A stretch of 55,448 nt of DNA from Streptomyces amritsarensis (GTDB lineage Bacteria; Actinomycetota; Actinomycetes; Streptomycetales; Streptomycetaceae), in the NCBI RefSeq assembly GCF_001953875.1, contig NZ_MQUR01000006.1, positions 91,937 through 147,384 on the forward strand, written 5' to 3'. Numbering within the stretch: position 1 is the first letter of the stretch; each line of letters starts with the position of its first letter. The position numbers and the translations under genes were made by a program. Below, piece by piece: positions 1 through 17,117 of the stretch. The notes beneath the pieces are model-generated. The model saw only the letters and a program-made list of their open reading frames with translations. It searched no databases and was not told the origin of the DNA.

Positions 1-1712
<1,712 letters not shown>

Positions 1713-2126
1713 GTGATCCCTTTCGAGGGCCTGTTCCGGGCAGGCCGGAACGGCCGGTTCGGTGCAGTGTGGGAGGTTCCGGCGGCCGCGGGGCCGGGAG
1801 CGAGTTGGTCGGTCTCGCCCCGGCTGCCGCCGCACGCCACGTTGTCCCGGCCGCAACGGCGAGGCAGGGGCAACGGCGGTCCCGGCGCGCTTCCCCCGGT
1901 GGTAGGCCTACACGCCATGTGGGGTTGGAGTGTGTACCGCCCGGCCTGGAGAAGATCGCCGGTGGGCAGACAGTAGGCAACGCGGGGATGAACTGGATAC
2001 CGGGAAAACCCTTGTCCGCCCCCTTCGGCTCCCCCCGGGGTTCCCTCAGCAGGGGGTGTGATCAGGTCTTTCCCTGTTCACGGGCACGGCACCGGGCGCC
2101 GCGCGGCGCGGCGCGGCGCCGGGGGC
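1713..2126. other. Intergenic region upstream of the protease gene
   Basis: This 414-base stretch separates the protease start from the stop of the DUF1838 gene on the same strand. It should hold the protease promoter and leader. I see no tRNA, convincing small ORF or strong terminator hairpin. The long open frames across it on either strand look like GC-bias artefacts. Confidence 0.4.
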
Positions 2127-2885
2127 TCACTCCCCGCGGTCCGGCGGGAACAGCTTGCGGAAGTACGTCCAGCTCGTCTCGTTCGGTTCGCTCCATTTCT
2201 CCGGCGCGTGGGCGAACTCGGGATGGTGGTCGGCGATGTACGCGCGGGTGCGTTCGGGGACCTGCGCGTAGGCGTCGAGCTTGCGGCCGCGGCAGTGGAA
2301 GGTGAGGCCGCCGGGGCGGGGGCCCTGTTCCATCCACGGCAGCCACGGGGACATCCGCGTCCAGGACATCGTCGCCGGGACGCTCGCCTCGTCGGTGGTC
2401 AGGGCGGTGGCGGGTGCGAAGAACTGGAAGAGTTCCAGCGCCCGGTAGGTGTCGTCGGCGCAGTGGTCCGGGTACTCCTCGACCGGCAGCGGCGAGGGGT
2501 AGGCGAGCGGGATCTCCAGGCTGAAACAGATCTGGTCGCCCAGCTCGGTCACGGGGACGGGGAAGGGGCGCCACCTCTGGTTGGCCGGGTCGTTCCAGAC
2601 GTGGACCACGGGCTTGTCCTGCCAGGTCTCCATGATCTCGCGGGTCACCGGGTCCAGGTAGAACGCGGCCTCCCGGGACAACAGCCGGTAGCCGCCGGCC
2701 TCCTCGTCCGCCACCAGGCGCGAGACGTTGACCCCTTCGAAGCCGAACAGCCGCCGGTAGGGCTCGCCCGGTGCCCAGGAGTGGACGTCGCCGGTCCACC
2801 AGTAGGCGACCTCGCCGCCGTCGAGTCGGCAGCGGGTGCGGGCGAATGCGTGCAGGAGCTCGGCGGGGGTCGCTGCTGGTGTCAT
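2127..2885 (-). CDS. DUF1838 family protein
   Basis: A 252-residue protein of no known activity, matching the DUF1838 family by its aromatic pattern (AYWWTGDVHSW, LLSREAAFYLDPVTREI, NQRWRPFPVP, TMSWTRMSPWLPWM). No signal peptide or membrane segment is visible, so it is probably cytoplasmic. The ATG at 2885 was chosen because family similarity begins at MTPAATPAELLHAF. The open frame continues upstream only as low-complexity Arg/Pro/Gly sequence. There is no clear Shine-Dalgarno site, so the start could shift slightly. It is monocistronic, 380 bases from the divergent DUF1996 gene. Some family members are annotated near SnoaL-like or carotenoid-associated genes, but nothing here supports a pathway. 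Confidence 0.8.
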   Translation of the reverse strand: MTPAATPAELLHAFARTRCRLDGGEVAYWWTGDVHSWAPGEPYRRLFGFEGVNVSRLVADEEAGGYRLLSREAAFYLDPVTREIMETWQDKPVVHVWNDPANQRWRPFPVPVTELGDQICFSLEIPLAYPSPLPVEEYPDHCADDTYRALELFQFFAPATALTTDEASVPATMSWTRMSPWLPWMEQGPRPGGLTFHCRGRKLDAYAQVPERTRAYIADHHPEFAHAPEKWSEPNETSWTYFRKLFPPDRGE

Positions 2886-3265
2886 GCGCCCACTGTGTCG
2901 GCTCCCGCACGGCCCGACAAGCGGCCCCGCGGACAGGACCGGCCGTGCGCCGGCGCCCACTTCGGCGCCCCGCCCCGCACTGCCCCGTACCGCCCCGCAC
3001 CGCACCGCCGTGCTGCCCGATGTGGCGGATGCGGGCGTCGCGGCCCGTCCGGAAGGGCCGTACGCGCCCTCCGCGGGCCGCGGGCCGCGATGCGGGAGGG
3101 GCTCGCGCTCCGGATCCCGGGGGACGGCGGCACCACCGTTCACCTGCGGCCCTACCGTCCCGCGCGACGCATCGCCCCACACCGGACCGTGCGAACCGCC
3201 GTGCGGGCGACCGCCATGCGGATGCCAGGTTGACGGCTGGGTCGCCACCGGCAACCGTGACCGCC
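2886..3265. other. Divergent intergenic region with GC-rich short repeats
   Basis: This 380-base gap lies between two divergently transcribed genes and should contain both promoters. Around 2975-3010 there is a run of short imperfect direct repeats built on CCGCCCCGCA/CCCCGTACCG. I see no recognised operator or RNA gene. Confidence 0.35.
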
Positions 3266-4273
3266 ATGGGGAAAGAACGCCGACTGCTCACTCTCGTCAT
3301 CTGCCTGGTCCTGGGGGGTGCGCTGACCGCCGCGGTGCTGGGCGCCACGCGCACCGCCGGACCGCACGCGGGTGCGCCGGCCGGTGCCCCCGCACCGTCC
3401 GACTACGTGGACATACGTGATGTTCCGCCCGCCCCCGCCGCCGCTCCGGCCACCCCCGCCGACCGGAGCGACGGCTCGCCGGGCTCGGTGGCGGTGGACT
3501 GCGGCCGCAACGAGCAGGGGCACTACAACGAGGACAACCTGGTGGTCTCGCCCGGCCTGCGGGCCGGCGCCCACCACACGCACTCCTACGTGGGCAACCT
3601 GTCCACGGACGCCATGTCGACCGACGAGTCGCTGGCCGCCGCCGCCACGAGCTGCGCGGGCGGCGACCGTTCGACGTATTACTGGCCCGTCCTGCGCCGC
3701 CTGGACCGGCCGGGGGTGCGCCCCCACGAGACCTCGGCGGGGCACGGCAACAGCGGCGAGATCGTGCCCGAGACCTCGGTGCGGGTCGAGTTCCGCGGCA
3801 ACCCGGTGAGCAAGGTGGTGGAGATGCCGCCCTTCCTGCGCGCGATGACCGGCGACGCGGTCGCCCGCACTGCGGGCAGCGACGCCCATGTCCGGGCCCG
3901 CTGGGGGTGTTCCGGCTCCCCCGACCGCTCCACCACCCGCTACCCGCGCTGCCCCGAAGGCGACCGCGTCACCCGCACGCTGGTCTTCCCGAGCTGCTGG
4001 AACGGCCTCGACACCGCGAGCGCCGGGCACCGCTCGCACCTGTTGTTCCCCGGGGGCAACGGCGTCTGCCCCACCGACACCTTCCCCGTGCCCGAACTGC
4101 GCCTCTCCCTCGCCTACGAGGTCCCCGCGGGGGTGCCGGTCGCGATCGACTCCTTCCCCGAGCAACGGCACAGCCCCAGGACGGACCACGCGATGTTCGT
4201 GAACGCGATGACCGGGCCGCAGATGGCCGCGGTCGTCGACTGCCTCAACGAGGGCCGGGCCTGCCGGACTTGA
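3266..4273 (+). CDS. Secreted DUF1996 domain protein
   Basis: A 335-residue exported protein. The N-terminus MGKERRLLTLVICLVLGG begins a signal peptide or anchor, followed by an Ala/Pro-rich linker to about residue 75 and then a DUF1996 domain. Family hallmarks are AHHTHSYVGNLSTDA, FPSCWNGLDTASAGHRSHL and CPTDTFPVPELRLSLAY, with several Cys that may form disulfides. DUF1996 occurs in secreted fungal and actinobacterial proteins, sometimes with carbohydrate-binding modules, but its activity is not established. The ATG at 3266 is favoured because the signal peptide starts there. A GTG three codons earlier is possible. It ends 99 bases before the sigma factor gene without a visible terminator. 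Confidence 0.82.
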   Translation: MGKERRLLTLVICLVLGGALTAAVLGATRTAGPHAGAPAGAPAPSDYVDIRDVPPAPAAAPATPADRSDGSPGSVAVDCGRNEQGHYNEDNLVVSPGLRAGAHHTHSYVGNLSTDAMSTDESLAAAATSCAGGDRSTYYWPVLRRLDRPGVRPHETSAGHGNSGEIVPETSVRVEFRGNPVSKVVEMPPFLRAMTGDAVARTAGSDAHVRARWGCSGSPDRSTTRYPRCPEGDRVTRTLVFPSCWNGLDTASAGHRSHLLFPGGNGVCPTDTFPVPELRLSLAYEVPAGVPVAIDSFPEQRHSPRTDHAMFVNAMTGPQMAAVVDCLNEGRACRT

Positions 4274-4372
4274 ACACCCCGAACCTCGGGTGACGCAGGT
4301 CACATGAACCGTTTCGGCTCCGCCGGCGTGTTCCGACCGCACCACGCAAGCGAGGAAGACGGAGAGGGTGAG

Positions 4373-4984
4373 ATGGCCGGACCACTGTGGCCCCGCACTC
4401 GGCGGGGCTCGACCGACGAGGCACTGATCAAGTCCGTGTACGAGGAGCACGGCCACGCCCTGCTCGCGTACGCCACCCGGCTGACCGGGGACCGGGCTGC
4501 GGCCGAGGACGTCGTGCAGGAGACCCTGATACGTGCCTGGCGGCACTCCGAGGTCCTCGTGAACGGAAAGGGCTCGGTACGCGGCTGGCTGCTCACCGTG
4601 GCCCGTAACATCATCACCGACCGGTACCGGGCCAGGGCCGCCCGGCCGCCGGAGGTGTCCGGTTCGGCGGCCGCTCCCCCGGTGGAGGCGGACCACGCCG
4701 ACTCCGTGGTGGACAGCATGACGGTGCTGGGGGCTCTCGACCGGCTGTCCCCGGAACACCGGGACGTGCTGAAGGAGTTGTACTACCGGCAGCTCAGTGT
4801 GGCGGAAGCCGCCGACACCCTCGGCATCCCGGCGGGTACGGTCAAGTCGCGTTCGCACTACGCGCTCAAGGCCCTGCGCGACGTCTTCAGGGACGACGGC
4901 TTCCGGGAGAGCGGAACAAAAGACGGAAAAAGATCGGGCAGGCCGCCCCAGCAGCCGGCCGGACTGCGTGAGGTGGTGGCATGA
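4373..4984 (+). CDS. ECF RNA polymerase sigma factor
   Basis: A 203-residue group 4 (ECF) sigma factor. Region 2 is seen as LIKSVYEEHGHALLAYATR through DVVQETLIRAWRH and WLLTVARNIITDRYR. Region 4 is LDRLSPEHRDVLKELYYR followed by the helix-turn-helix LSVAEAADTLGIPAGTVKSR. The ATG at 4373 was chosen for the GGAGAGGG ribosome site four bases upstream. An in-frame ATG at 4304 lacks one. Its stop overlaps the start of the anti-sigma gene by ATGA, so the pair is translationally coupled. The sigma factor is presumably held inactive at the membrane until the anti-sigma factor releases it. The inducing signal is unknown. Confidence 0.92.
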   Translation: MAGPLWPRTRRGSTDEALIKSVYEEHGHALLAYATRLTGDRAAAEDVVQETLIRAWRHSEVLVNGKGSVRGWLLTVARNIITDRYRARAARPPEVSGSAAAPPVEADHADSVVDSMTVLGALDRLSPEHRDVLKELYYRQLSVAEAADTLGIPAGTVKSRSHYALKALRDVFRDDGFRESGTKDGKRSGRPPQQPAGLREVVA

Positions 4985-5706
4985 ACCGGCAGCGGCACGA
5001 GGAGGAACTGCTCGGCCCGTACGTGCTCGGCGTCCTGGACGACGAGGAGGTCCGCCGGGTCGAGGGACACATGAGCGGGTGCGTGCAGTGCCGGGAGGAG
5101 GTGGCCGCGTTGCGTGAGATGGAGGCGGCACTGGGCGAGGTGCCCGAGGAGGCGTTCCTCGACGGACCGCCGCAGGGCGGCGACCTGCTGCTCCAGCGCA
5201 CGCTGCGGCAGATGCGGGGCGAGCGCGCCGGTGCCGCACGCCGTCGTGCGGGGCTCACGGGCCTGGCGGTGGCGGCTTCCCTGGCCGCCGTGTTCTGGGC
5301 CGGTACGCAGCTGGGCACGGGCGGTCCCGACCCCGTCGCACTGCCCCAGCCCCCGTCGCCGACCGCTCCGGCGGACCCCTCTCCCCCGCCCAAGGGGACC
5401 ACGCTGCACTCCGCGACCGATGCGGGCACGGGTGCGCGGATGACCGTACAGATGACGCCGGCCACCAAGTGGGTGCGGTTGCGGGCAGCGGTCACCGGTG
5501 TGCCGCCGGGCGAACGCTGCAGGCTGATCGTGGTCTCCAAGGACGGCAAGCGCACCACCGCGGGCAGCTGGGTCGTGGGAAGCCAGGAGAACGGCGAGGC
5601 CAAGGGCGCCGGTCTGGACGGTTCGGCCGCCGTCGACCGGGCGGACGTCAAGGCCGTCCTGGTCGAGAACGAGGCCGGCAGGACCTTCGTGTCCGTCCCC
5701 GTGTGA
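4981..5706 (+). CDS. Zinc-type (zf-HC2/ZAS) transmembrane anti-sigma factor
   Basis: A 241-residue partner of the ECF sigma factor just upstream. The N-terminal ZAS domain carries His-x3-Cys-x2-Cys (GHMSGCVQC, near residues 30-38), which binds zinc and packs against sigma. One membrane segment follows (GLTGLAVAASLAAVFWAG, about residues 87-104), then a Pro-rich spacer and a C-terminal extracytoplasmic domain of the RskA type (TGARMTVQMTPATKWVRLRA to the end). This layout implies a signal perceived outside the membrane, probably through regulated proteolysis. The 4-base overlap fixes the start. A strong hairpin lies 50 bases downstream. Confidence 0.93.
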   Translation: MNRQRHEEELLGPYVLGVLDDEEVRRVEGHMSGCVQCREEVAALREMEAALGEVPEEAFLDGPPQGGDLLLQRTLRQMRGERAGAARRRAGLTGLAVAASLAAVFWAGTQLGTGGPDPVALPQPPSPTAPADPSPPPKGTTLHSATDAGTGARMTVQMTPATKWVRLRAAVTGVPPGERCRLIVVSKDGKRTTAGSWVVGSQENGEAKGAGLDGSAAVDRADVKAVLVENEAGRTFVSVPV

Positions 5707-5755
5707 CCCGGGGACGGTTGACCGGTTGACCGCGTGACCTCGGGGCGGACGTGAC

Positions 5756-5788
5756 GGAGCCCGGGAGCATATCCAGCTCCCGGGCTCC
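5756..5788. terminator. Strong bidirectional hairpin between convergent transcripts
   Basis: A perfect 13-bp stem (GGAGCCCGGGAGC at 5756-5768 with its complement at 5776-5788) closes a 7-base loop. It sits between the anti-sigma stop at 5706 and the tRNA-like units arriving on the minus strand. There is no long T run, which is usual for Streptomyces terminators. Confidence 0.85.
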
Positions 5789-5790
5789 TG

Positions 5791-5819
5791 CGTGCCACCC
5801 AATTGCGCACACCGGCACG
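5791..5819 (-). other. Hairpin in the 3' trailer of the tRNA-like transcript
   Basis: CGTGCC at 5791-5796 pairs with GGCACG at 5814-5819, leaving an 17-base loop that contains the short self-complementary stretch GTGCGCAATTG. It lies between the 5'-half module of the Gly-like unit and the terminator. It may shape the trailer for processing or form part of the termination structure. Support is pairing only. Confidence 0.4.
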
Positions 5820-5843
5820 TTTAAGAGTCGCGGATCATTCTGA

Positions 5844-5920
5844 GATCGACGTGTTCTACCTTTGAACTACCGCGCCACGGTAGAGGCGCAGGAGGGACTT
5901 GAACCCCCATCCATCGATGG
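5844..5920 (-). tRNA. Circularly permuted tRNA-like gene B, reconstructed as tRNA-Gly (NCC)
   Basis: In minus-strand order: anticodon-loop bases CCAT (5920-5917), anticodon-stem 3' strand CGATG (5916-5912), a 3-nt variable region, T-stem GGGGG with T-loop TTCAAGT (5903-5897) and CCCTC, acceptor 3' strand CTGCGCC (5891-5885), discriminator T5884 and a 7-nt linker. Then come acceptor 5' strand GGCGCGG (5876-5870), TA, D-arm GTTC/AAAGGTA/GAAC (5867-5853), A26, anticodon stem CGTCG (5851-5847) and ATC. Acceptor strands pair 7/7 with one G-U, but only across the linker. Joining the halves gives loop A-T-C-C-C-A-T, anticodon CCC (ACC if the junction is one base earlier), about 70 nt. The D-arm and U73 match bacterial tRNA-Gly. 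CCA is not encoded. The 3-nt variable region is short. The exact junction is inferred. Confidence 0.75.
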
Positions 5921-5984
5921 TCGTCCACGCTCGGTCGATCCGGTGTTCGGCGGCGAATACTGAGACTGGAGCGAGAATCTGAGA

Positions 5985-6068
5985 TTCATGGGGCCGCCTC
6001 TACCAGCTTGGGCCACCCCGGCACGCAATGCCGGGGGAGGGATTCGAACCCCCAACTGACACCCCTGT
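5985..6068 (-). tRNA. Circularly permuted tRNA-like gene A (anticodon unresolved, GAA/Phe possible)
   Basis: In minus-strand order: ACA (6068-6066), anticodon-stem 3' strand GGGGT (6065-6061), a 7-nt variable region, T-stem GGGGG, T-loop TTCGAAT (6048-6042), CCCTC, acceptor 3' strand CCCCGGC (6036-6030), discriminator A6029 and a 6-nt linker. Then come acceptor 5' strand GCCGGGG (6022-6016), TG, D-arm GCC...GGTAGA...GGC (6013-5996), G26, anticodon stem GCCCC (5994-5990), A32, T33 and GAA. The acceptor pairs 7/7 by Watson-Crick and the anticodon stem 5/5 with one G-U, again only with the 3' half first. No encoded CCA. The mature loop cannot be fixed: GAA fits Phe and A73, but position 37 would then be C, which is unusual. 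No normal-order partner exists for either half. Confidence 0.7.
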
Positions 6069-6107
6069 TTCAGCTTCAACATCAGTTTCAGCTTGCGCTC
6101 TCGCGCA

Positions 6108-6129
6108 CCTCCCGCAGACATACGGGAGG
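6108..6129 (-). other. Leader hairpin between the DUF7873-like stop codon and tRNA-like unit A
   Basis: CCTCCCG at 6108-6114 pairs with CGGGAGG at 6123-6129 around an 8-base loop, 12 bases after the upstream stop codon. Immediately downstream on the transcript, TGCGC-GAGA-GCGCA (6107-6094) forms a second small hairpin with a GNRA tetraloop. With no T run, and with RNA structure continuing through it, this looks more like a processing or leader element than a terminator. Confidence 0.5.
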
Positions 6130-6141
6130 GGTTCTTGAGGG

Positions 6142-6873
6142 CTACCTGAACAGGTAGCCGAACACCGCGTCCCCGACCCGCTGGTCGGTGACCTCGGCGC
6201 TGTTGGCCTCCTCACGGGCGTACTTGACGGCCTGCTGGAGCTTCTCGACACGGTCGAGCAGCTCGTTGACCCGCCGGGCGGGCAGCGCGCCGGAGAACTT
6301 CACGGTCGTCCAGTATCCGACCGGCACGTCCTCGTAGTACACCTCGACCTGGGCCGGGTGCTTCTCGGTGGCCTCGGCCTTGACGTGGTTGCGCGGCACC
6401 TTCTTGGTGCGGATCGTGCGTACCGGGTCCGTCTTCCAGGAGTCCGTGGACGGGTCCAGGTTCCAGGATTCGGATGCGTCCAGCACCGGCAGCTTCCGCA
6501 CGAAGGTGTGCAGGTCCGTGAGCTGCTTCTCCAGGAAGAGCAGATACGGCACGGGCACCTGCGCCAGCAGGACGTTGCCGTCGACGACCACGTCCGCGGC
6601 GGCGCTGCGGTTCGCCCAGTCCTTGGTGGCCGTCACGTCGAAGAGCCGTGTGAGCGTCCCGGCCGTCGCGCGCAGCACGTCCTCCGCCTTGACCTGCACC
6701 CGGGTGGACTCGGGCGGCAGCTGCTCGCCCTCCTCGTCCTTGGGCTGGTACGTCCGCGAGATGCCGGCCAGCAGGGCGGGCTTCTGCACGTCGTGGTGAG
6801 CCTGGGTCAGCTCCTGGAGGGACTTGGACTTGACGCCCTTTTCGACTGCGATGATCTGATTCAGCTTCGGCAC
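6142..6873 (-). CDS. Conserved protein of unknown function, DUF7873-like, upstream of the permuted tRNA-like units
   Basis: A 243-residue soluble protein with a GTG start at 6873 (MPKLNQIIAVEKGVKSKS). It is charged, has no signal peptide or membrane segment, and contains ISRTYQPKDEEGEQLPPES, RLFDVTATKDWANRSA and a C-terminal helical region (RRVNELLDRVEKLQQAVKYAREEA). From memory the sequence resembles DUF7873 proteins of Streptomyces and actinophages. That assignment is recall, not a search. Its start lies 12 bases after the stop of the leucine-rich-repeat gene, and its stop is about 75 bases before the first tRNA half, so one transcript probably carries all three. No catalytic motif is recognised. 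A role in RNA processing would be guesswork from position. Confidence 0.7.
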   Translation of the reverse strand: MPKLNQIIAVEKGVKSKSLQELTQAHHDVQKPALLAGISRTYQPKDEEGEQLPPESTRVQVKAEDVLRATAGTLTRLFDVTATKDWANRSAAADVVVDGNVLLAQVPVPYLLFLEKQLTDLHTFVRKLPVLDASESWNLDPSTDSWKTDPVRTIRTKKVPRNHVKAEATEKHPAQVEVYYEDVPVGYWTTVKFSGALPARRVNELLDRVEKLQQAVKYAREEANSAEVTDQRVGDAVFGYLFR

Positions 6874-6885
6874 GTGATCAACCTA

Positions 6886-8307
6886 TCAGCCGCTTGTCCG
6901 ATCATTCACCCGGATTTCCGGCACGCCCGCCCGGTCCAGGATCCGGCGCATGTCCTCGGGCGGGAGAGCCGGGTTGGTGGCCGCGGCGGCCGCGGTGTGC
7001 TCGTCCGGATCGGCGAGCAGTTCGCGGATCCGCGCCACGGGGAGCCGGGGGTGCCGGGCGGCGGCGTTCCTCGTCCCGGGGTCCTGGCTGAGGCGGTCGA
7101 GGAGTTCCGGATCCAGGCCGGGGTCGTGCAGGGCCAGCATCCGGCGTTCGGGATCCGGCGAGTCGCCGAAGCGGGCGGCGAGCCCGGCGAAGGGGAAGCC
7201 CGGCCGGGCGGTCAGCATGCCGACGGCGCGGTGGGTGCCGCCCAGGTAGAGGTCGAGGAGCAGCTCCGGCGGCGGTGCCGGGTGGAACTCCGCGAGCAGC
7301 AGTCGGACGGCGAAGTCCTCGTCTTCCGCGAGCAGTTCGACGGCGTCGGCCGGCAGGCCCGGGCAGACGGCGGCGCTGCGGCGCAGCCAGGTGTGCGCGG
7401 ACCGGGCGCACTGCCGCAGGAACTCGGCGTCCTCACGGCGCTCCCACACCCATTGGAGCGTGCCCAGCCGGGCCTCGGGGTCCACGGTGTAGTCGATGGC
7501 GGCCCGGTCGGCCTCGCTCAGCTCGGGGCGGGCGGAGACCACCAGCCGGACCGCCGGGTCGGGGTCGACGGCGAGGCGTGCCACCAGGTCGGGCGCGAGC
7601 GACGGGTTGCCCGCGAGCTCCCGGAGCCGATCGCCCTCGGCGACCAGGCGTTCGGCGAGTTCCCGGGGGAGCCGGCCGGTCCGCAGGATTTCGGCCGCCG
7701 GCCACGAGCCGTCCAGTTCCCCGATGAGCCAGGCAGTGCGTTCCTCGTCCTCGGGGCAGACCTGTTCGGCGGCCGCCAGCCGTACCTCGCGGTCGTCGTC
7801 GTGCAGGAGTCGCTGCCGCGCTGCGTCCGGGAGCTCGTGCCAGGCGTACCGGCAGGCGGCCAGGCGGAACAGCGGGTCCTCGTGGTCCGCGAGGCCGACC
7901 AGCACGTGGGCGGGCGGCCGCCCGCCCCAGCTGAACAGTTCCTGGCGCACCAGGGCCTCGGGGTGCTTCAGCAGCCGCTCGTACGCCCAGTCGGGCAACG
8001 GGGGCACCGGCTCCCGGTAGGGCATGGGACCGACCGCGAGGCTGAGGTGGACCGACTTGGACGGGTCGTCGACCAGCCGGGCCCGCTGCTCGGGGTCGGC
8101 GTCGGCGTTCTCCGCGAAGGCCTTCCGGACCTGGCGGTCCGGGTGGACCAGAATGGCCTCGATCACTTCCTGCGGCAGAACGGCACGCTTCGGAACCGGG
8201 CGCCGCGCGCACTCGTCCTCCTGGCCGAGCAGCCGCAGCAGCACATCCGCCGGTGCCGCTCTGTTGACCGCCAGCGCGCACAACTGACGCGTCCACTGGT
8301 CGCACAT
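6886..8307 (-). CDS. Leucine-rich-repeat-variant (LRV)/HEAT-like repeat protein
   Basis: A 473-residue alpha-solenoid protein. Repeats of about 24 residues recur throughout, with cores such as LAGNPSLAPDLVARLAVDPDPAVRL, here shortened in mention, including RLAVDPDPAVRLVVSARPEL, LLHDDDREVRLAAAEQV, LLAEDEDFAVRLLLAE and ELLADPDEHTAAAAATNPAL. This is the LRV pattern seen in many Streptomyces proteins and normally means a protein- or nucleic-acid-binding scaffold. An N-terminal Cys pair occurs (MCDQWTRQLC) but no clear Fe-S cluster motif. The ATG at 8307 has a GGGGGGAAG ribosome site. It is probably first in the transcript that continues into the DUF7873-like gene and tRNA-like units. Function is unknown. 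Confidence 0.8.
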   Translation of the reverse strand: MCDQWTRQLCALAVNRAAPADVLLRLLGQEDECARRPVPKRAVLPQEVIEAILVHPDRQVRKAFAENADADPEQRARLVDDPSKSVHLSLAVGPMPYREPVPPLPDWAYERLLKHPEALVRQELFSWGGRPPAHVLVGLADHEDPLFRLAACRYAWHELPDAARQRLLHDDDREVRLAAAEQVCPEDEERTAWLIGELDGSWPAAEILRTGRLPRELAERLVAEGDRLRELAGNPSLAPDLVARLAVDPDPAVRLVVSARPELSEADRAAIDYTVDPEARLGTLQWVWERREDAEFLRQCARSAHTWLRRSAAVCPGLPADAVELLAEDEDFAVRLLLAEFHPAPPPELLLDLYLGGTHRAVGMLTARPGFPFAGLAARFGDSPDPERRMLALHDPGLDPELLDRLSQDPGTRNAAARHPRLPVARIRELLADPDEHTAAAAATNPALPPEDMRRILDRAGVPEIRVNDRTSG

Positions 8308-8476
8308 GTTCCGTACTTCCCCCCGTCGAACGGAAACGGGAAGCCTAACAAGGAGGCCGGAGGGTCACACCGCAGCCCACAGGCGGACCGATCATCACAT
8401 TGCGGTCCATGACATCCTGTGACGTCACAACTCGCCGGGCGGATTCGGCGGACGTCCGGGAATTTGGGGAAGGTCG

Positions 8477-9448
8477 ATGAGGCTCTGCTTCCTGGTGGAG
8501 GAGCACTACCGTCACGACGGTATGCCGAACGAGGTGATCGGACAGCTGACCGCGTGGGGGCACCGTGTGGACGTCCTGCGGCCCGGCGGCTCGCTGCTGC
8601 GCATGACCGAGGTCGTGGCCGAGGGTGCGCACGACGCCTGGGTGCTCAAGACGGTGTCGGGCGGCCCGGGGCTGACCCTCCTCGAAGCCGCCGCTGCGAC
8701 CGGGCTGACCACCGTCAACGACGCCCGCTCGATCCGCGGCGTACGGGACAAGGCGCTGGCCGCCGCCATCGGGCGCGGCCGCGGCCTCCCGCTGCCGCCC
8801 ACCTACGCCGTCGCCCGCCCCGAGTTGCTCAGGGAGATACCGGCGGCCGAGTACCCGCTCGTGGTCAAGCCCGCCGACGGCAGCTCCGGGCGGGCGGTGC
8901 ACCTGGTGTCCTCGCCCGGGCGGCTGGAGACACTGCTGCCCGTGCTCGCGGGCGAGGGCATGCTCATCGCCCAGCCGTACGTACCCAACTCGGGCACGGA
9001 CATCAAGGTGTACGCGGTCGGCGGGGAGCTGTTCGCGACCGAGCGGTGTTCCCCGCTGCACCCCGACCCCTCGGTCCGTGAGCGCCGCGTACCGTTGTCG
9101 TCCGAGGTCGCCGCGATCGCCGCCCAGGTGGGGGCGGTCTACGGGCTCGACCTGTACGGGGTGGACGTACTGCTGGGTCCCGACGGACCGGTGGTCGTGG
9201 ACGTCAACGACTTCCCGAGCTTCCGGCAGGTGCCGGACGCGGCGGCGCGGGTGGCCCGCGCCGTACTGGGGCTGGCGCGGGCCGGCGGCGGCCCCGCGAC
9301 GGCCGCACCCGTGCCCGCGGTCGCGCCCGTGGCACAGGCACCGGCAGCCGCGACGACGATGGCGGCGGCGCCCGTGTCGCTCCCCCTGTCGATCCCGGCC
9401 CAGTCGTCTCCGGCGCAGATCTCCGCCGCGGCGGGTGACACCGTATGA
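8477..9448 (+). CDS. ATP-grasp (RimK/glutathione synthetase-like) ligase 1
   Basis: A 323-residue ATP-grasp carboxylate-amine ligase. The N-terminal domain (MRLCFLVEEHYRHDGMPNEV) is followed by ATP-binding segments LVVKPADGSSGRAVHLV and LIAQPYVPNSGTDIKVYAVG, and the metal-binding end VVVDVNDFPSF with Asp and Asn. A Pro/Ala/Ser-rich tail of about 60 residues is probably disordered. The family activates a carboxylate as acyl phosphate for amide bond formation. The acceptor substrate cannot be read from sequence. It overlaps the next ATP-grasp gene by ATGA. The start has a GGGGAAGG ribosome site and faces away from the LRV gene. Confidence 0.87.
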   Translation: MRLCFLVEEHYRHDGMPNEVIGQLTAWGHRVDVLRPGGSLLRMTEVVAEGAHDAWVLKTVSGGPGLTLLEAAAATGLTTVNDARSIRGVRDKALAAAIGRGRGLPLPPTYAVARPELLREIPAAEYPLVVKPADGSSGRAVHLVSSPGRLETLLPVLAGEGMLIAQPYVPNSGTDIKVYAVGGELFATERCSPLHPDPSVRERRVPLSSEVAAIAAQVGAVYGLDLYGVDVLLGPDGPVVVDVNDFPSFRQVPDAAARVARAVLGLARAGGGPATAAPVPAVAPVAQAPAAATTMAAAPVSLPLSIPAQSSPAQISAAAGDTV

Positions 9449-10242
9449 GGATCGGCCTGATCACCCCGGAGCCCGGACACCCGCTGCTGGCGGACACCAC
9501 CGCGCTGCTCACGCCGGAGCACGAGGTGGCGGCGCTCGATCCGATCACCCTCGGGGACGTACCCCTGCCGCTGGCCGATGTGTACCTGCTGAAGTCGCGG
9601 ACGCCGCACGCGCTGGGGCTCGCGCGGTACCTGGAGCGGCGGGGCGCGCCGGTGGTCAACACGGCGTCGGCCACCGCGCTGTGCCAGGACCGCACGGAGA
9701 TGGCCGGGCTCGCCCTGCGGGCCGGTCTGCCGTTCGCCGCGACCCGTACCGTCGGCGCGTTGGGGGCGTGGGCGAGCCGGGCGCGGCCGTCCGCCCCCGT
9801 GGTGGTCAAGAGCCGGCGCAGCCGGCGCGGCGACCTCGTCGCCCGTGCCGACGGCCCCGCGCGGCTGCGGGAGTTGGCGCGGGACTGGCCGCGGGAGCCG
9901 GTCGTGGTGCAGGAGTACGCGCCCAACAACGGCTGGGACCACAAACTGTGGGCCGTCGGCGACCGGGTCTTCTCCGCCCTGCGCCGGTCGGAGCTCTCCC
10001 CCGGCGGACGCGGCCCCACCCTCCCGTCGGCCGTGGACGAACTGCCCGCCGGCTGGGCCGATCTGGTGCGCCGGGTCGGATCGGTGTTCGCGCTGGACGT
10101 CTACGGCGTGGACATCATCGACACCGGCGGTGGGACGCCCCTGATCGTGGACGTCAACGCCTTCCCCGGCATCCGCGGCCAGGCCGGCGCCCCGGAGGCC
10201 CTCGCCGCGCTGGCCCTGCGGCGGGCGGCCGGCCGGACCTGA
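9445..10242 (+). CDS. ATP-grasp (RimK-like) ligase 2
   Basis: A 265-residue ATP-grasp protein, shorter than its neighbour. Visible elements are MRIGLITPEPGHPLLADT, the ATP-binding strand APVVVKSRRSRRGDLVARA, VVVQEYAPNNGWDHKLWAVG and the metal site LIVDVNAFPGIRG. Gene order and shared motifs suggest a diverged paralogue of the upstream gene, perhaps adding a second residue or forming a heteromer. The 4-base overlap implies translational coupling. A DMT transporter follows after 112 bases, so the set could make and export a small amide-linked compound. That is inference. Confidence 0.85.
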   Translation: MRIGLITPEPGHPLLADTTALLTPEHEVAALDPITLGDVPLPLADVYLLKSRTPHALGLARYLERRGAPVVNTASATALCQDRTEMAGLALRAGLPFAATRTVGALGAWASRARPSAPVVVKSRRSRRGDLVARADGPARLRELARDWPREPVVVQEYAPNNGWDHKLWAVGDRVFSALRRSELSPGGRGPTLPSAVDELPAGWADLVRRVGSVFALDVYGVDIIDTGGGTPLIVDVNAFPGIRGQAGAPEALAALALRRAAGRT

Positions 10243-10354
10243 CGCGGCTCGGCGGCGCCGCGCGGCAGGTCCGGACGGGGGAATGCGGCCCCCGCGACGC
10301 CCGCGGCCCGGTGTCGCGGCACGGGCGGGCGCCGGACGCGGTGAGGATCGGGAC

Positions 10355-11209
10355 ATGGGCGTCGTCCTGCCGGTCTTCTTCGCGCTGTTCGCGGCCTTCA
10401 GCAACGCGCTGGCCACCGTGCTCCAGCGGCGGGCCGCGCTCACCGTGCCGCAGAGCGAGGGCTTTCGCCCCGGTCTCGTCCTGGACCTGCTGCGCCGGCC
10501 CGTGTGGGTCGCGGGCATCCTGGCCGTGATCGCGGCCGGTGCCGGTCAGGCCGCGGCGCTGGCCACGGGCGCGCTGGCCCTCGTACAGCCCCTGTTCGTG
10601 CTGGAGCTGCCGCTCGCCCTGCTGATCGCCTCCCTGCTGACCCGGCAGCGGCTGCCGGGAGCGCTGTGGCTGGCCGTGGCGGGGGTGGTGGCGGGGCTCG
10701 GGGTCGCGCTGGTGGCCGCCTCGCCGTCGGGCAACCGCACCGACGTGCCGACCGAGCGGTGGGTGGTGGCGCTGCCGGCCTGCGCGGTGATCGTCGCCCT
10801 GCTCGCCGTGGCCGGCCTGCGGCGGCCGCCGGGCCGTTCGCGGGCCGGCTTCCTCGGCGCGGCCACCGCAGTCTGCTACGCGCTCACGGCCGCCCTGATG
10901 AAGTCCTCCGTGCACGTCCTCGACGAACACGGCATCGGCGGGTTCCTCACCGCCTGGGAGACGTACGCCTTCGGCGCGAGCGGCATCTGCGCCCTTCTGC
11001 TGCTCGAACACGCCATGCAGGGCGGCCCGCTGGTCGCCTCGCAGCCCGCCCTGACCCTCGGCGACGCGAGCATCAGCATCGCGCTGGGCGTGGTCCTGTA
11101 CGAGGAACACCTGCGCGCGGGCTGGTGGCTGCTCCCCCAGCTGCTGGGCGTGGCCCTGGTCTGCGCGGGGGTGTTCGCCCTGTCCCGGGCCGGGGAGGGC
11201 GCGCCCTGA
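10355..11209 (+). CDS. DMT/EamA-superfamily membrane transporter
   Basis: A 284-residue integral membrane protein with about nine to ten hydrophobic segments (MGVVLPVFFALFAAFSNALA, VWVAGILAVIAAGAGQAAAL, LWLAVAGVVAGLGVALVAA, WWLLPQLLGVALVCAGVFAL) in the two-repeat arrangement of drug/metabolite transporters. The segment ATVLQRRAAL is typical of Streptomyces DMT proteins with an N-terminal Gln-Arg pair. The ATG at 10355 follows GAGGATCGGGAC. It is downstream of and co-oriented with the two ATP-grasp genes and converges on the MatB-like gene. The substrate is unknown. Confidence 0.82.
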   Translation: MGVVLPVFFALFAAFSNALATVLQRRAALTVPQSEGFRPGLVLDLLRRPVWVAGILAVIAAGAGQAAALATGALALVQPLFVLELPLALLIASLLTRQRLPGALWLAVAGVVAGLGVALVAASPSGNRTDVPTERWVVALPACAVIVALLAVAGLRRPPGRSRAGFLGAATAVCYALTAALMKSSVHVLDEHGIGGFLTAWETYAFGASGICALLLLEHAMQGGPLVASQPALTLGDASISIALGVVLYEEHLRAGWWLLPQLLGVALVCAGVFALSRAGEGAP

Positions 11210-11225
11210 CCCGGCCGGACACCCG

Positions 11226-13547
11226 CTACGGGTACGGATGCCCCTGCGGGGACGGCCAGATGTGGTTCTGCGGGCCCGGCGCCGCGGGGTGGGGCGCCCA
11301 GGGGTCCGTGTCGTAACCCCCGTACGGGCCGGCGGGATCCGGCCAGGGCTCGGGCCGGATCTCGGCGGCCGGCGGGGCCGCGGTCACGAACTGCGGCTCG
11401 GCCGGGGGTTCCGACGGGCCGACGGGCACCTGGAGGCTGCCGTAGCGCTCCATGCGCTGCCAGCGCAGGCGGGAGCCGGCCACGGCGGTGAAGACGGACT
11501 GGATCACGACCAGGTACATGAGCTGGCGGTAGACGAACTGCTGGAGGGGCAGGCTCCAGAGCGGGCCGGGACGTTCGCCGTCCAGCCGGAACGCGTACAC
11601 GCCCATCAGCACCTGGAGCAGCAGGAAGGCCGTCCACAGACCGAGGATGCGCAACGGGTCGAGGAAGACCAGCCCGTAGACGGCGAAGACGTCCACGACG
11701 GGAGCGAGCAGCGGCAGCAGGACCTGGAACATCAGGAGGTAGACCAGGCCGCGGCGGCCGAGCTTGCCGGCCTGGCCGCGCTGGGCGAGTGCCCCGCGGT
11801 GCTTCCACATGGCCTGCAGGGTGCCGTAGCACCACCGGTAGCGCTGCTTCCACAGGGCGCCCAGCGATGCGGGGGCTTCGGTCCAGGCCTTGGCCCGCTC
11901 CTCGTAGACCACGCGCCAGCCGTCCCGGCACAGGGCCATGGTCAGATCGGTGTCCTCGGCCAGCGTGGCGTCGCTGACACCGCCCACCCGCAGCAGGGCC
12001 TCGCGGCGGAACGCCCCGACCGCGCCGGGGACGGTGGGCATGCACTCCGCGAGGTCGAACAGACGGCGGTCGAGGTTGAATCCGACGACGTACTCGATGT
12101 GCTGCCACCGGCCGAGCAGGCCTCCCCGGTTGACGACCTTGGCGTTGCCGGAGACCGCGCCGACCCTGCGCTGGGCGAAGGGCTGGACGAGCATGCGGAC
12201 CGCGTCCGGTTCGAAGACGGTGTCGCCGTCGACCATGACGAGCAGGTTGCAGGAGGCCGCCGCTATCCCCGTGTTCAGGGCGGCCGGCTTGCCCGCGTTC
12301 TGCTGCCGGATGACCCGTACGCCGGGCAGCCGGAGCGCCTCCACGATGTCGGCCGTGCCGTCGGTGGAGCCGTCGTCGACCACGATGACCTCGACGGGGT
12401 GGTCGGAGGCGAGCAGGGAGCGGACGGCCGCCTCGATCCCGGCGCTCTCGTTGTACGCGGGCACGATGACGCTCACCGGCTCGGTCACCGCAGCGCCCCA
12501 GGGCCTGCGCCGCATCCGCACGTGCCGCCGGGCGGCGACGAACACGGCGACCGCGCGGAGCAGGCTGATCGCGCCCGCCGCCCACAGCAGCCACGACAGC
12601 ACGTCGAGGATCCAGCCGCTGGTGCGGAGTGCGGCGATCAGTGCCATGCCCTGCCACCGGTCGGCGGTGTCGGCGCTCCGCACGGCGGTGGGGAGGGCGA
12701 CCGCGTCGCCCACGGTGGCGAACGTCCAGCCGGACGCCTTCAGCCGCGGCACGAGCTGTTCGAGCGCGGCCACCGTCTGGGAGCGGTCCCCGCCGGCGTC
12801 GTGCAGCAGCACGACCTGGCCGGCGGAGTCGGCGGGGGTGGCGGCGGCGACGATCGCTTCGACGCCGGGGCGGCGCCAGTCCTGGCTGTCCAGGGTCGTC
12901 AGGACGGTCAGGTACCCCTCCTCCCCGGCCTGGACGACCGCGTCCCAGTCGGCGTCGCCCAGCGCTTTGCCGGTGGAGGAGTACGGCGGGCGCAGCAGGG
13001 GCGTGGTGACCCCGGTGGCGCCGGCGATGACGAGCTGGGTCTCGCGCAGCTCCAGGGAGCGGCGCCAGGCGGACACGGCGCCGAGGTCGGTGTGCGTGAA
13101 GCCGTGCAGGCCGATCTGGTGGCCCTCGGCGACGATTCGGCGGGCCAGGTCCGGGTTCTCGGCGACGCGGGTACCGACGGTGAAGAACGTCGCGGGCACC
13201 CCGTTGCGGCGCAGCACGTCGAGGATCTTCGGGGTCCAGACGGGGTCGGGGCCGTCGTCGAAGGTCAGGGCGATCGTGCGGGGTGCCGGGGTGGCGGTCC
13301 GGCCGGCCGCCCCCTCGATGACCGGGCCGCCGGAGCCGATCGCGGCCGGTACGGACGTCGCGGCCGCCTGCCGGCGGGGAGCCCCGTCGGGGCGCTCGTC
13401 GAACAGGTGCTGGGTGTAGCCCTCGAGGAGCAGCGCCGCCGAAAGCGTCAGCACGAGGGTGGTGAGCAGCAACCAGTGAGTACGCAGGGGGACATCGCGT
13501 ACGGAGGTGTGCCTGCCCTGCGGGCGGCGGCGGCGGTTCTTCGACAC
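11226..13547 (-). CDS. matB: Bifunctional polysaccharide deacetylase / family 2 glycosyltransferase (MatB-like)
   Basis: A 773-residue membrane protein. After one N-terminal membrane segment (WLLLTTLVLTLSAALLLEG) comes a NodB deacetylase domain (IALTFDDGPDPVW, metal ligands in HGFTHTDL, RPPYSST). Two further membrane segments follow, then a GT2 synthase domain (VSVIVPAYNES, VVDDGSTDGT, MVDGDTVFEPDAV, EDTDLT, KQRYRWCYGT, the QxxRW motif) and C-terminal membrane helices. This order matches MatB of S. coelicolor/lividans, which with MatA makes poly-beta-1,6-N-acetylglucosamine for hyphal aggregation. The GTG at 13547 is chosen. The frame upstream is low-complexity and belongs to the preceding gene region. 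Gene identity rests on domain order and the partner. Confidence 0.82.
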   Translation of the reverse strand: MSKNRRRRPQGRHTSVRDVPLRTHWLLLTTLVLTLSAALLLEGYTQHLFDERPDGAPRRQAAATSVPAAIGSGGPVIEGAAGRTATPAPRTIALTFDDGPDPVWTPKILDVLRRNGVPATFFTVGTRVAENPDLARRIVAEGHQIGLHGFTHTDLGAVSAWRRSLELRETQLVIAGATGVTTPLLRPPYSSTGKALGDADWDAVVQAGEEGYLTVLTTLDSQDWRRPGVEAIVAAATPADSAGQVVLLHDAGGDRSQTVAALEQLVPRLKASGWTFATVGDAVALPTAVRSADTADRWQGMALIAALRTSGWILDVLSWLLWAAGAISLLRAVAVFVAARRHVRMRRRPWGAAVTEPVSVIVPAYNESAGIEAAVRSLLASDHPVEVIVVDDGSTDGTADIVEALRLPGVRVIRQQNAGKPAALNTGIAAASCNLLVMVDGDTVFEPDAVRMLVQPFAQRRVGAVSGNAKVVNRGGLLGRWQHIEYVVGFNLDRRLFDLAECMPTVPGAVGAFRREALLRVGGVSDATLAEDTDLTMALCRDGWRVVYEERAKAWTEAPASLGALWKQRYRWCYGTLQAMWKHRGALAQRGQAGKLGRRGLVYLLMFQVLLPLLAPVVDVFAVYGLVFLDPLRILGLWTAFLLLQVLMGVYAFRLDGERPGPLWSLPLQQFVYRQLMYLVVIQSVFTAVAGSRLRWQRMERYGSLQVPVGPSEPPAEPQFVTAAPPAAEIRPEPWPDPAGPYGGYDTDPWAPHPAAPGPQNHIWPSPQGHPYP

Positions 13548-13618
13548 GGGGTGGGGCTTCCTGACTGCTGCGGCGGGCGGTGCGGTACGGGCGGTGTGGA
13601 CGGTGCCGGCCCGCAGGC

Positions 13619-14164
13619 TCAGGGCCGGCCCGTGGGTTTGCCGCCGCCCTGACCGGGCGGCGTGGTGAAGCGGCCGCGGCCGCCCGGGGACGCCTCGGCC
13701 GGGTTCCCCGGCCCGTCGGTCGACTGCGTCGGCGCCGGTCCGGTGCCGGGGGTCCTGCTGCCCGCGGTGGCGGCCGGCGCGGGCGCGCTGGGCCGTGAGG
13801 CGGCCGGGGTGGCCCGGGGGGTTCCGCCCGCCGTGCCGCGGGGGGACGGGCCGGTCGTCCCGGCCTTGGCCGGCTCCCCGGGCGCCGGGGTGTGCGGGGA
13901 CTGGGCGGAGGGCAGGAACGGCGAGGGGAAGGTGGGGCCGCCCATCAGCGTGCTCAGGAGCAGGATGACGTAGGCGGCGGCCGGTATCACCAGGAGTCGG
14001 CCCCATCGGCGCACCCACCGCTGCCTGCGCCCGGAGCTGTCCACGAACACGGGTGCCTCGGCGCGGGGAGGGTCCGGCGGTCCCGGCGCCGTGCGGGCGG
14101 CGGACACGTCACCGAGGAAGAGCTCCAACGTGTCCTCGTCGTGGGCGCCTGGGGCTGGGTGCAT
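13619..14164 (-). CDS. Membrane-anchored Pro/Ser/Gly-rich protein in MatA position
   Basis: A 181-residue protein with a short cytoplasmic N-terminus (MHPAPGAHDEDTLELFLGD), an Arg-rich stretch, one membrane helix (LLVIPAAAYVILLLSTLM, near residues 58-75) and a low-complexity extracytoplasmic tail. It ends 71 bases before the MatB-like gene on the same strand, so the two are probably one operon. By position it is a MatA candidate, but I cannot confirm homology. The tail has no catalytic motif and codon bias there is extreme. Confidence 0.6.
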   Translation of the reverse strand: MHPAPGAHDEDTLELFLGDVSAARTAPGPPDPPRAEAPVFVDSSGRRQRWVRRWGRLLVIPAAAYVILLLSTLMGGPTFPSPFLPSAQSPHTPAPGEPAKAGTTGPSPRGTAGGTPRATPAASRPSAPAPAATAGSRTPGTGPAPTQSTDGPGNPAEASPGGRGRFTTPPGQGGGKPTGRP

Positions 14165-14408
14165 GCGTCGTGGCCTCTGGGGATCGGGCGACGGGTGTCG
14201 GACGTCGTGGCGGTGACCCGGTCACCGGATGGCGACCCATGCCCCTCAGCGCTGCAGACGCCGCTGGTGTCACTCCCGAGAGCACGAATCGGGCCGTTTC
14301 CACACGTTGCGGGTACGGCGGGGGGCGCGCGCCCGGATGCGGTGCGCCCCTGTGGGCCGGCATCATCCGACCCGGGGGCGGACGGACCGTGCCGGGACGG
14401 GGTGGGTG

Positions 14409-14703: not shown

Positions 14704-14933
14704 CGGGCGGGCCCGGCTGCTGCCGGGACGGCGGCATCGGCAGGCCGTGGGACGCCCCCGCGGCGGCCCGAAAGCGGGGCGGAAGCGCACGACTCGGCCG
14801 CCGCGGCCCAAGGCCGCCCCGGCCCGGGGCGGGGCGAACCTGCGGCTGCGCCGGGCGCCCACCGCGGCGCCGTGCGACCGAGGCGGCGCCGTGCCGGTAT
14901 GCGACTCCCGCCGCCCCGGCGGGGGGGCTTCCC

Positions 14934-14950: not shown

Positions 14951-14963
14951 GAGAAGCCGGGAC

Positions 14964-17082: not shown

Positions 17083-17117
17083 CGCGGCAGTTCCGCGACG
17101 GGGCGGCGGCCGGCCCG

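What the first reader, a model, noticed from the sequence alone, without database searches (positions are those of the whole stretch)
5844..6068. Two tandem circularly permuted tRNA genes in a bacterium
On the minus strand two adjacent units each begin with a T-arm and acceptor 3' strand and end with the matching acceptor 5' strand and D-arm. Unit A: CCCCGGC (6036-6030), then 6-nt linker after A73, then GCCGGGG (6022-6016), 7/7 Watson-Crick. Unit B: CTGCGCC (5891-5885), 7-nt linker after U73, then GGCGCGG (5876-5870), 7/7 with one G-U. T-loops TTCGAAT and TTCAAGT and D-arms with GGTA are canonical. Anticodon-stem strands also pair (GCCCC/GGGGT; CGTCG/CGATG). No normal-order partner exists for any half. 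Permuted tRNA genes are established in red and green algae and in Thermofilum; I know of no accepted bacterial example. Ordinary tRNA finders would miss these or call them pseudo.
Basis: partly seen in the sequence, partly recalled or inferred. Interest (0 to 1): 0.97.

Follow-up and report, generated by a model that had tools for sequence, protein, structure and literature searches.

The report
Paired tRNA-shaped RNAs with DUF7873 gene
In a Streptomyces-like bacterium, and in phages of several distant hosts, a protein gene of unknown function is followed by two small RNA genes whose tRNA-like parts are written in swapped order; they are likely tRNA-shaped scaffold RNAs that work with that protein, rather than tRNAs that read codons.

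Summary
In detail: both units lie where stated, with 7/7 acceptor pairs across the linker. In 63 homologues of unit B, chosen by DNA similarity, acceptor and basal stems show compensatory changes. "Permuted tRNA genes" is not supported: circularised units give no constant anticodon, and in 11 of 80 chromosomal loci unit A has lost its tRNA-like cap but kept its basal strands. The architecture is that of bacterial Y RNA (YrlA), a published circularly permuted tRNA mimic. Yet the locus does not co-occur with Ro60, and unit B's stem differs from that of Ro60-linked copies. It is tied to DUF7873: of 199 genomes of the genus, all 93 with DUF7873 have the RNA and none of 106 without. The pair recurs beside DUF7873 in phages of Arthrobacter, Gordonia, Rhodococcus, Klebsiella and a cyanobacterium, and in viral contigs. 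Best reading: a Ro60-independent RNP cassette in which DUF7873 likely binds two permuted tRNA-mimic RNAs. DUF7873 has no confident fold match; five literature searches showed nothing on it. Binding, expression and function are untested.

The parts
6142..6873 (-). DUF7873 protein gene (243 aa), directly upstream of the RNA pair; predicted partner protein
   Evidence: Pfam PF25283, E 1.7e-121, residues 1-242. In 199 genomes of the genus all 93 with DUF7873 have the RNA and none of 106 without. AlphaFold2 pLDDT 91.1, pTM 0.66; no confident fold match.
5944..6102 (-). RNA unit A (about 160 nt): permuted tRNA-like cap on a basal stem
   Evidence: covariance model R2 of 40 chromosomal homologues, 175.8 bits, E 4.9e-54; Rfam YrlA 33.6 bits, E 5.4e-4, below gathering 69
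6070..6092 (-). unit A basal stem, 5' strand (conserved GCTGAAACTGA...GCTGA)
   Evidence: located; kept in loci that lost the cap
6037..6053 (-). unit A T-arm, loop TTCGAAT
6016..6036 (-). unit A acceptor: 3' strand 6036-6030, A73 and linker 6029-6023, 5' strand 6022-6016
   Evidence: 7/7 pairs; varied pairs in 90 diverse A units, where pairing was a selection criterion
5996..6013 (-). unit A D-arm GCC CAAGCTGGTAGA GGC
5960..5985 (-). unit A basal stem, 3' strand (ATCTCAG...TCGCTCCAGTCTCAG)
   Evidence: TYGCTC in 67 of 67 chromosomal A units and 31 of 63 viral/phage ones, CTCAG-type motif in 67 of 67 and 27 of 63
5796..5955 (-). RNA unit B (160 nt): permuted tRNA-like cap on a basal stem
   Evidence: covariance model R1, 158.5 bits, E 4.3e-37 (this locus is in the model); Rfam YrlA 30.9 bits, E 0.0032
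5924..5945 (-). unit B basal helices, 5' strands: H1 CACCGG 5945-5940, conserved ATCGACC, H2 CGTGGA 5929-5924
   Evidence: H1 98.7% and H2 83.1% of cells paired, double changes in 4 of 6 and 6 of 6 pairs; coordinates and inspection
5892..5908 (-). unit B T-arm, loop TTCAAGT
5870..5891 (-). unit B acceptor: 3' strand 5891-5885, U73 and linker 5884-5877, 5' strand 5876-5870
   Evidence: 99.3% of cells paired across 63 homologues, 6 of 7 pairs with double changes
5853..5867 (-). unit B D-arm GTTC AAAGGTA GAAC
   Evidence: 99.2% paired
5847..5916 (-). unit B anticodon-stem-like helix, CGATG 5916-5912 with CGTCG 5851-5847
   Evidence: sequence, by inspection; anticodon-stem-like 5/5 pairing in 70 of 128 viral/phage units against 7-8% in dealt controls
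5810..5834 (-). unit B basal helices, 3' strands: H2 TCCGCG 5834-5829, conserved CTCTTAAACG, H1 CCGGTG 5815-5810
   Evidence: motif in 70 of 83 chromosomal and 30 of 66 viral/phage B units
5756..5788 (-). 13-bp perfect hairpin downstream, candidate terminator of the cassette
   Evidence: the pattern scan found no terminator with a T run, so the role is inferred

Best explanation
The locus is a cassette of the DUF7873 protein gene followed by two noncoding RNAs, each predicted to fold as a circularly permuted tRNA mimic standing on a long basal stem, and these RNAs likely form a ribonucleoprotein with DUF7873 instead of being made into tRNAs. Shown: the permuted order; compensatory changes in acceptor, T, D and basal stems of unit B; no constant anticodon; strict linkage to DUF7873 and none to Ro60 in one genus; recurrence beside DUF7873 in phages of distant hosts. 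Inferred: the two basal stems, kept even where the cap of unit A is lost, are the protein-binding part (as the YrlA stem is for Ro60), and DUF7873 is the protein that binds them. Inferred: the tRNA-shaped caps (T-arm, acceptor with N73-CCA in many copies, D-arm) attract or imitate tRNA for a tRNA-handling enzyme, by analogy with the YrlA cap, which is modified by tRNA enzymes and binds PNPase. In four of the 12 phage records read the cassette sits inside a tRNA gene array, so I favour a role in handling, protecting or sensing tRNA; that last step is speculative.
For: YrlA hits at both units, also sub-threshold in phage and viral loci. Covariation on 63 homologues of unit B chosen without structure: 95.7% paired, 265 double-change cells against 82 shuffled (0/500), slid controls 37-45% paired. 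DUF7873 in 93 of 199 genomes, RNA by DNA search in 87 of 199, all 87 within the 93; the six others carry both RNAs by covariance model; a scan with R1 finds 92 of 199 at E 1e-9, all DUF7873-positive, one match each. Ro60: 47 of 87 RNA-positive against 48 of 112 negative, Fisher p 0.15. R1, built only from chromosomal B units, finds a near-full-length B unit in 64 of 82 phage/viral DUF7873 loci at E 1.1e-7 or better, 62 of them downstream on the same strand. R2, built from chromosomal A units, gives end-to-end matches in 55 of 82 at E 1e-8 or better, 49 of them above 46.1 bits, the best Ro60-linked score. Either model near-full-length at E 1e-6: 69 of 82. These counts are by hand from the tables; 82 of 92 loci were searched. 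Ro60-linked YrlA match R1 almost only at the cap, positions 48-104. Cap of A lost in 11 of 80 chromosomal loci with basal strands kept. No constant anticodon.
Against: No binding, expression or phenotype data; gene neighbourhood alone links DUF7873 to the RNAs. The structure searches show no RNA-binding fold for DUF7873. R2 also aligns end to end with Ro60-linked YrlA at 15-46 bits, so unit A's stem is less cleanly separated from YrlA than unit B's, and R1 gives one end-to-end match to a Ro60-linked copy (L010, 29.1 bits). The stem motifs are weaker in viral/phage units (A 27-31 of 63, B 28-30 of 66) than in chromosomes. Of 80 viral loci 11 gave no unit with the detector; the models find units in six of them (L246, L270, L274, L313, L315, L317), weak hits in L303 and L312, none beside the gene in L257 and L295; L258 was not searched. 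In L317 the pair lies upstream and in L315 on the other strand. The Vibrio and two Rhizobium phages show one detector unit and no model match. N73-CCA would also fit cleavage into a two-piece tRNA-like RNA.
Confidence: 0.7

Rival explanations
1. They are ordinary YrlA Y RNAs that serve the cell's Ro60 (Rsr) protein in trans, the DUF7873 neighbour being incidental.
For: Same permuted module and Rfam hits. The genome does encode a TROVE protein with two YrlA copies just upstream of it. R2 aligns end to end with Ro60-linked copies, 15-46 bits.
Against: 40 of 87 RNA-positive genomes have no TROVE match. UACUUC stem sequence in 13 of 15 units from Ro60-linked loci, 0 of 67 A and 0 of 83 B chromosomal units. 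RNA and DUF7873 are together or both absent in 199 of 199 genomes.
Confidence: 0.12
2. They are permuted RNAs processed like two-piece tmRNA: RNase P and 3' processing remove the linker, leaving a nicked, CCA-ended tRNA-like RNA that can be charged.
For: CCA at positions 74-76 in 26 of 56 unique A and 26 of 58 unique B phage/viral units; elsewhere in the linkers CCA stands at 2 of 295 and 22 of 725 positions. Only 35 of 278 canonical plus-strand tRNAs in the phage/viral loci scanned encode CCA. Permuted tmRNA precursors are thought to be cut by RNase P and tRNase Z (PMC3985003 passages).
Against: Only 1 of 64 unique chromosomal B units has the CCA, and the window's units have none. No Rfam tmRNA match in window 1-20000. 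Many linkers look like closing loops (TCTCGT, ACTCGA). The cap can be lost.
Confidence: 0.12
3. They are true permuted tRNA genes that yield decoding tRNAs.
For: Canonical T and D loops, G18G19, 7-bp acceptors; ARAGORN calls a tRNA for 258 of 262 circularised chromosomal and viral units.
Against: Anticodon calls differ among close homologues; basal helices outside the anticodon stem covary; cap dispensable.
Confidence: 0.03
4. The RNAs are a 3' UTR control element of the DUF7873 mRNA, bound by DUF7873 to limit its own amount.
For: In the window unit A begins about 40 nt after the stop codon (6142 to 6102). The T-arm of the first unit lies 84-242 nt after the stop in 80 of 80 chromosomal loci, same strand, and 44-603 nt after it in the 80 phage/viral loci with a detector unit.
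Against: In L317 the pair lies upstream of the gene and in L315 on the other strand, which does not fit an obligatory 3' UTR. In the Microcoleus phage the matches lie 1.8 kb downstream, with a HEARO element in the gap.
Confidence: 0.13

Closest known systems
YrlA bacterial Y RNA (Rfam RF02553; PDB 6CU1 as cited in PMC11472068)
   Same: Circularly permuted T-arm, acceptor and D-arm cap on a basal stem formed by the RNA's two ends; also found in tandem upstream of TROVE in this genome.
   Different: Partner gene is DUF7873, not Ro60/Rsr; unit B's basal stem differs, unit A's less clearly; A-B pair; score below the Rfam cut-off.
Circularly permuted two-piece tmRNA
   Same: Permuted acceptor across a linker, CCA encoded in many copies.
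   Different: No Rfam tmRNA match in the window stretch searched; two tRNA-like units in tandem; DUF7873 partner.
Circularly permuted tRNA genes of red/green algae and Thermofilum
   Same: 3' half before 5' half with acceptor pairing across a linker.
   Different: No constant anticodon; cap dispensable; covarying basal stem where an anticodon loop would be.
PF25283 (DUF7873)
   Same: The neighbouring protein is a clear member (405 bits).
   Different: Described as a family of unknown function; its link with RNA genes was not found in the searches made.

Membership tests
Circularly permuted tRNA gene | 3' half precedes 5' half, acceptor strands pair across a linker | tested here: met
   7/7 in both units; covariation in unit B
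Circularly permuted tRNA gene | a conserved anticodon in a 7-nt loop after joining | tested here: not met
   15 different anticodon calls in 67 A and 25 in 83 B chromosomal units, 31 in 57 and 29 in 55 viral units; single calls are noisy because an intron is placed
Circularly permuted tRNA gene | BHB splicing motif at the junction | not tested
   no BHB search was run
Circularly permuted tRNA gene | mature tRNA joined across the termini | not testable with these tools
   needs RNA sequencing
YrlA (RF02553) | permuted tRNA-like cap on a basal stem | tested here: met
   alignments; for unit B
YrlA (RF02553) | Rfam gathering score of 69 bits | tested here: not met
   33.6 and 30.9 bits; the Ro60-linked copies of the same genome also fail it, 39.3 and 37.5
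YrlA (RF02553) | linkage to or co-occurrence with Ro60/Rsr (TROVE) | tested here: not met
   TROVE lies on another contig; 47 of 87 against 48 of 112 genomes, p 0.15
YrlA (RF02553) | stem sequence of the Ro60-linked copies in related genomes | tested here: not met
   UACUUC in 13 of 15 units of Ro60-linked loci (of the other two, one is a spurious antisense call and one reads UGCUUC), 0 of 67 A and 0 of 83 B chromosomal, 2 of 129 phage/viral units; that this is the Ro60 site is inferred. For unit A, R2 does not separate cleanly
YrlA (RF02553) | binds Ro60 and PNPase | not testable with these tools
   needs biochemistry
Two-piece tmRNA | match to an Rfam tmRNA family | tested here: not met
   none at E up to 1 in window 1-20000; one 24.8-bit beta_tmRNA hit in phage locus L160, gathering 84
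Two-piece tmRNA | encoded CCA at the acceptor 3' end | tested here: inconclusive
   26 of 56 unique A and 26 of 58 unique B phage/viral units, 26 of 56 chromosomal A, 1 of 64 chromosomal B; neither unit of the window
DUF7873 (PF25283) | Pfam gathering score of 27 bits | tested here: met
   405 bits over residues 1-242
Ro60/TROVE protein (for DUF7873) | TROVE sequence match or fold | tested here: inconclusive
   no TROVE in the Pfam scan at E up to 1e-3; structure searches give nothing confident

The most novel reading that the evidence does not exclude
DUF7873 and its two permuted tRNA-mimic RNAs form a previously undescribed ribonucleoprotein, parallel to but independent of the Ro60/Y RNA particle, that phages carry among their tRNA genes and that Streptomyces and its relatives have kept on the chromosome; its paired caps, often with a hard-coded N73-CCA end, pose as tRNAs to steer or shield tRNA metabolism.
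Probability: 0.5. Interest if true: 0.9.

Novelty: new variant of a known kind. Interest (0 to 1): 0.8.

Why it matters
Permuted tRNA mimicry in bacteria is known from YrlA, with Ro60 as its partner. Here the same RNA trick is tied to another protein family, of unknown function and with thousands of relatives (7,462 of the 7,999 candidates scored), in chromosomes and in phages of hosts as distant as actinobacteria, Klebsiella and cyanobacteria. It offers a first functional handle on DUF7873, suggests that tRNA-shaped RNA caps are a module that can be mounted on different protein-binding stems, and would give phages a tRNA-related RNP that the phage records read here do not annotate. Loss of one cap with retention of its stem makes the two-part design directly testable.

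Tried and rejected

Detector history: the first versions missed A units with C-initial or 13-nt D-loops; one search is the corrected count and the corrected CCA count. Units are sorted into A and B by D-loop shape; two chromosomal loci read 'BB' (L178, L187), where an A unit is miscalled B, and one 'ABB' has a third, probably spurious unit, so the 83 B units include about three wrong ones. Alignments were thinned by hand, not by structure: A4 has 63 of 85 sequences, A5 47 of 82, A6 40 of 44.

Literature (listings unless said): DUF7873, 0 papers; Streptomyces + Y RNA + Ro60, 0; YrlA + Streptomyces, 4 papers, of which passages of two were read; tRNA-like + phage + permuted and Streptomyces + tRNA-like + small RNA + intergenic + covariation listed nothing on this cassette. 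PMC11109978, PMC2864571, PMC7824862, PMC3985003, PMC3978253, PMC11472068 and PMC8394870 were seen only as passages around search terms. Subscription papers and preprints are not in the library.

Full report
1. Observation. On the minus strand unit A (T-arm 6053-6037, acceptor 6036-6030 / 6022-6016, D-arm to 5996) and unit B (T-arm 5908-5892, acceptor 5891-5885 / 5876-5870, D-arm 5867-5853) each have the 3' tRNA half before the 5' half, with 7/7 acceptor pairs. ARAGORN finds no tRNA in the window.

2. What the anatomy is. In window 1-20000 the only Rfam matches at E below 0.1 are YrlA, Y RNA-like, at 5972-6077 (33.6 bits, E 5.4e-4) and 5825-5930 (30.9 bits, E 0.0032), both below the gathering score of 69. 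YrlA is a published circularly permuted tRNA mimic: passages of PMC11472068 describe PDB 6CU1 superposing on tRNAs with a circular permutation, and passages of PMC8394870 describe its basal stem tethering Rsr and its tRNA-like part binding PNPase and being modified by DusA and TruB. The primary YrlA papers were not held.

3. An artefact to avoid. The genome's best YrlA hit (C165, 40.7 bits) is the junction of two tandem tRNA-Asn genes, which mimic a permuted unit. Many 112-nt hits of about 40 bits probably have the same cause and were not used. In our locus the acceptors of A and B differ, so pairing is unambiguous.

4. Covariation. A DNA search with the locus found it in 87 of 199 genomes of the genus, down to 69% identity; stretches were fetched. 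On 63 of 85 available unit-B homologues (A4), 28 pairs give 95.7% paired cells, 22 pairs with double changes and 265 double-change cells (shuffled 82, 0/500); slid controls are 37-45% paired. Acceptor 99.3%, T 99.7%, D 99.2%, basal H1 98.7%, H2 83.1%. Unit A's basal strands are nearly invariant, so their pairing was not supported by covariation.

5. The cap of A is dispensable. In 11 of 80 chromosomal loci the T-arm, acceptor and D-arm of unit A are gone while both basal strands remain; the gap between the strands shrinks from about 90-139 nt to 44-76 nt, closed by a plain hairpin in the clearest cases by eye (L193, L200, L206). Circularised units give no constant anticodon: 15 kinds in 67 A and 25 in 83 B chromosomal units, 31 in 57 and 29 in 55 viral units (the calls are noisy, since ARAGORN places an intron). 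This is not how a decoding tRNA behaves; it is how a modular Y-type RNA would.

6. The partner gene. Directly upstream is a DUF7873 gene. Of 199 genomes 93 have DUF7873; all 87 genomes with the RNA by DNA search are among them, the other six have both RNAs by covariance model, and a whole-genome scan with R1 at E 1e-9 finds 92, all DUF7873-positive, one match each; the 93rd, G010, reached E 3.5e-12 only in the local search. R1 was built from sequences of this set, so the informative part is that no DUF7873-negative genome has a match. Ro60 (TROVE) is in 95 genomes and independent of the RNA (47 of 87 against 48 of 112, p 0.15). DUF7873 was found in 6 of 296 genomes drawn from the phylum, all of the same genus (1 of 198 genera). 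It is not confined to the genus: named Kitasatospora and Actinacidiphila loci, a Nonomuraea and three Streptomyces records of the plasmid set and the control genome Deinobacterium chartae also have it; the RNAs were not sought in Nonomuraea or Deinobacterium. The organism is taken as Streptomyces-like because the nearest named relatives of the protein are Streptomyces.

7. Phages. DUF7873 occurs in 73 of 50,697 phage records (Vibrio, Gordonia, Rhizobium, Klebsiella, Serratia, Arthrobacter, Pseudanabaena, Rhodococcus, Microcoleus), at 28-58% identity in the 12 aligned, and in viral contigs (80 loci kept of 231). I read 12 phage loci. Racecar, Phendrix, NiceHouse, Pam2 and two Klebsiella jumbo phages show two permuted units by the detector; Ziko shows one by the detector and both by model; PA-SR01 one by the detector. 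Detector counts: 80 of 80 chromosomal, 69 of 80 viral, 11 of 12 phage loci with at least one unit; 69, 41 and 6 with two or more; start-to-start spacing 143-199 nt in 116 loci. R1, trained on chromosomal loci alone, recognises whole B units, basal stem included, in 64 of 82 phage/viral loci. R2 gives end-to-end A matches in 55 of 82 at E 1e-8 or better, of which 49 score above every Ro60-linked copy. In the Microcoleus phage, empty by the detector, R2 has an end-to-end match (42.9 bits) and R1 a partial one (32.6 bits) about 1.8 kb downstream, with a HEARO element in the gap. In the Vibrio phage and both Rhizobium phages only one detector unit was found and neither model gave a match, so these are the weakest cases. 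Of the 11 viral loci empty by the detector, models find units in six, L257 and L295 have none beside the gene, and in L317 and L315 the pair lies upstream or on the other strand.

8. Same cap, different stem. Ro60-linked YrlA from the same genus match R1 almost only at positions 48-104, the cap; the one end-to-end exception at E below 0.01 is in L010, 29.1 bits. UACUUC is in the 5' stem of 13 of 15 units from Ro60-linked loci and in 0 of 67 A and 0 of 83 B chromosomal units; an AUCGAC-type motif is in 67 of 83 chromosomal and 28 of 66 viral/phage B units and 0 of 15 Ro60-linked ones. R2 is less selective and aligns end to end with Ro60-linked units at 15-46 bits, against 176 bits for the window's unit A.

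9. The CCA. Position 74 is C in 52 of 56 unique A and 54 of 58 unique B phage/viral units, and CCA stands at 74-76 in 26 of each, far above the rest of the linker (2 of 295 and 22 of 725). Only 35 of 278 canonical plus-strand tRNAs in 87 phage/viral loci encode CCA. Chromosomal A units have it in 26 of 56, chromosomal B units in 1 of 64, the window's units not at all. So many units imitate, or are processed to, a mature tRNA end.

10. Protein. DUF7873 is predicted with high confidence (pLDDT 91.1, pTM 0.66), with long helices and long strands, but matches no solved or viral structure convincingly and no PDB sequence.

11. Mechanism. By analogy with Ro60 and YrlA: basal stems bind the protein, the cap works on tRNA-binding partners. 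That DUF7873 is the binder, and that the target is tRNA metabolism, are inferences from linkage, stem conservation, cap loss and, in four of 12 phage records, position inside tRNA arrays.

12. Verdict. As a kind it is a new variant of the Y RNA design with another partner.

Noticed in passing
L002 (G000:C165) 1487-1637: Two tandem tRNA-Asn genes give a false YrlA hit of 40.7 bits; the same artefact probably explains many of the 112-nt, roughly 40-bit YrlA hits across the genus.
   Followed up: partly
L001/L003/L004 (G000:C127:8838-9199): Ro60 (TROVE) gene preceded by two YrlA RNAs and, between them, a shorter stretch with similar stem strands but no visible tRNA-like cap (sequence).
   Followed up: partly
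L159 3450-3659: A HEARO element (129 bits) lies between DUF7873 and the displaced RNA matches in Microcoleus phage My-WqHQDG.
   Followed up: partly
L155 572-1100: tmRNA match (89 bits) inside the tRNA array of Gordonia phage Phendrix, not among the annotated features of the stretch.
   Followed up: no
L325 3518-3597: The record of Klebsiella phage FBKp24 annotates a suppressor tRNA (TTA) just before and into permuted unit B (T-arm starts at 3570), likely a miscalled piece of the permuted pair.
   Followed up: no
window 6886-8307 (-): 473-aa open frame with a weak LRV repeat match next to DUF7873; not studied.
   Followed up: no
window 11226-14018 (-): Polysaccharide deacetylase fused to a family 2 glycosyltransferase.
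   Followed up: no
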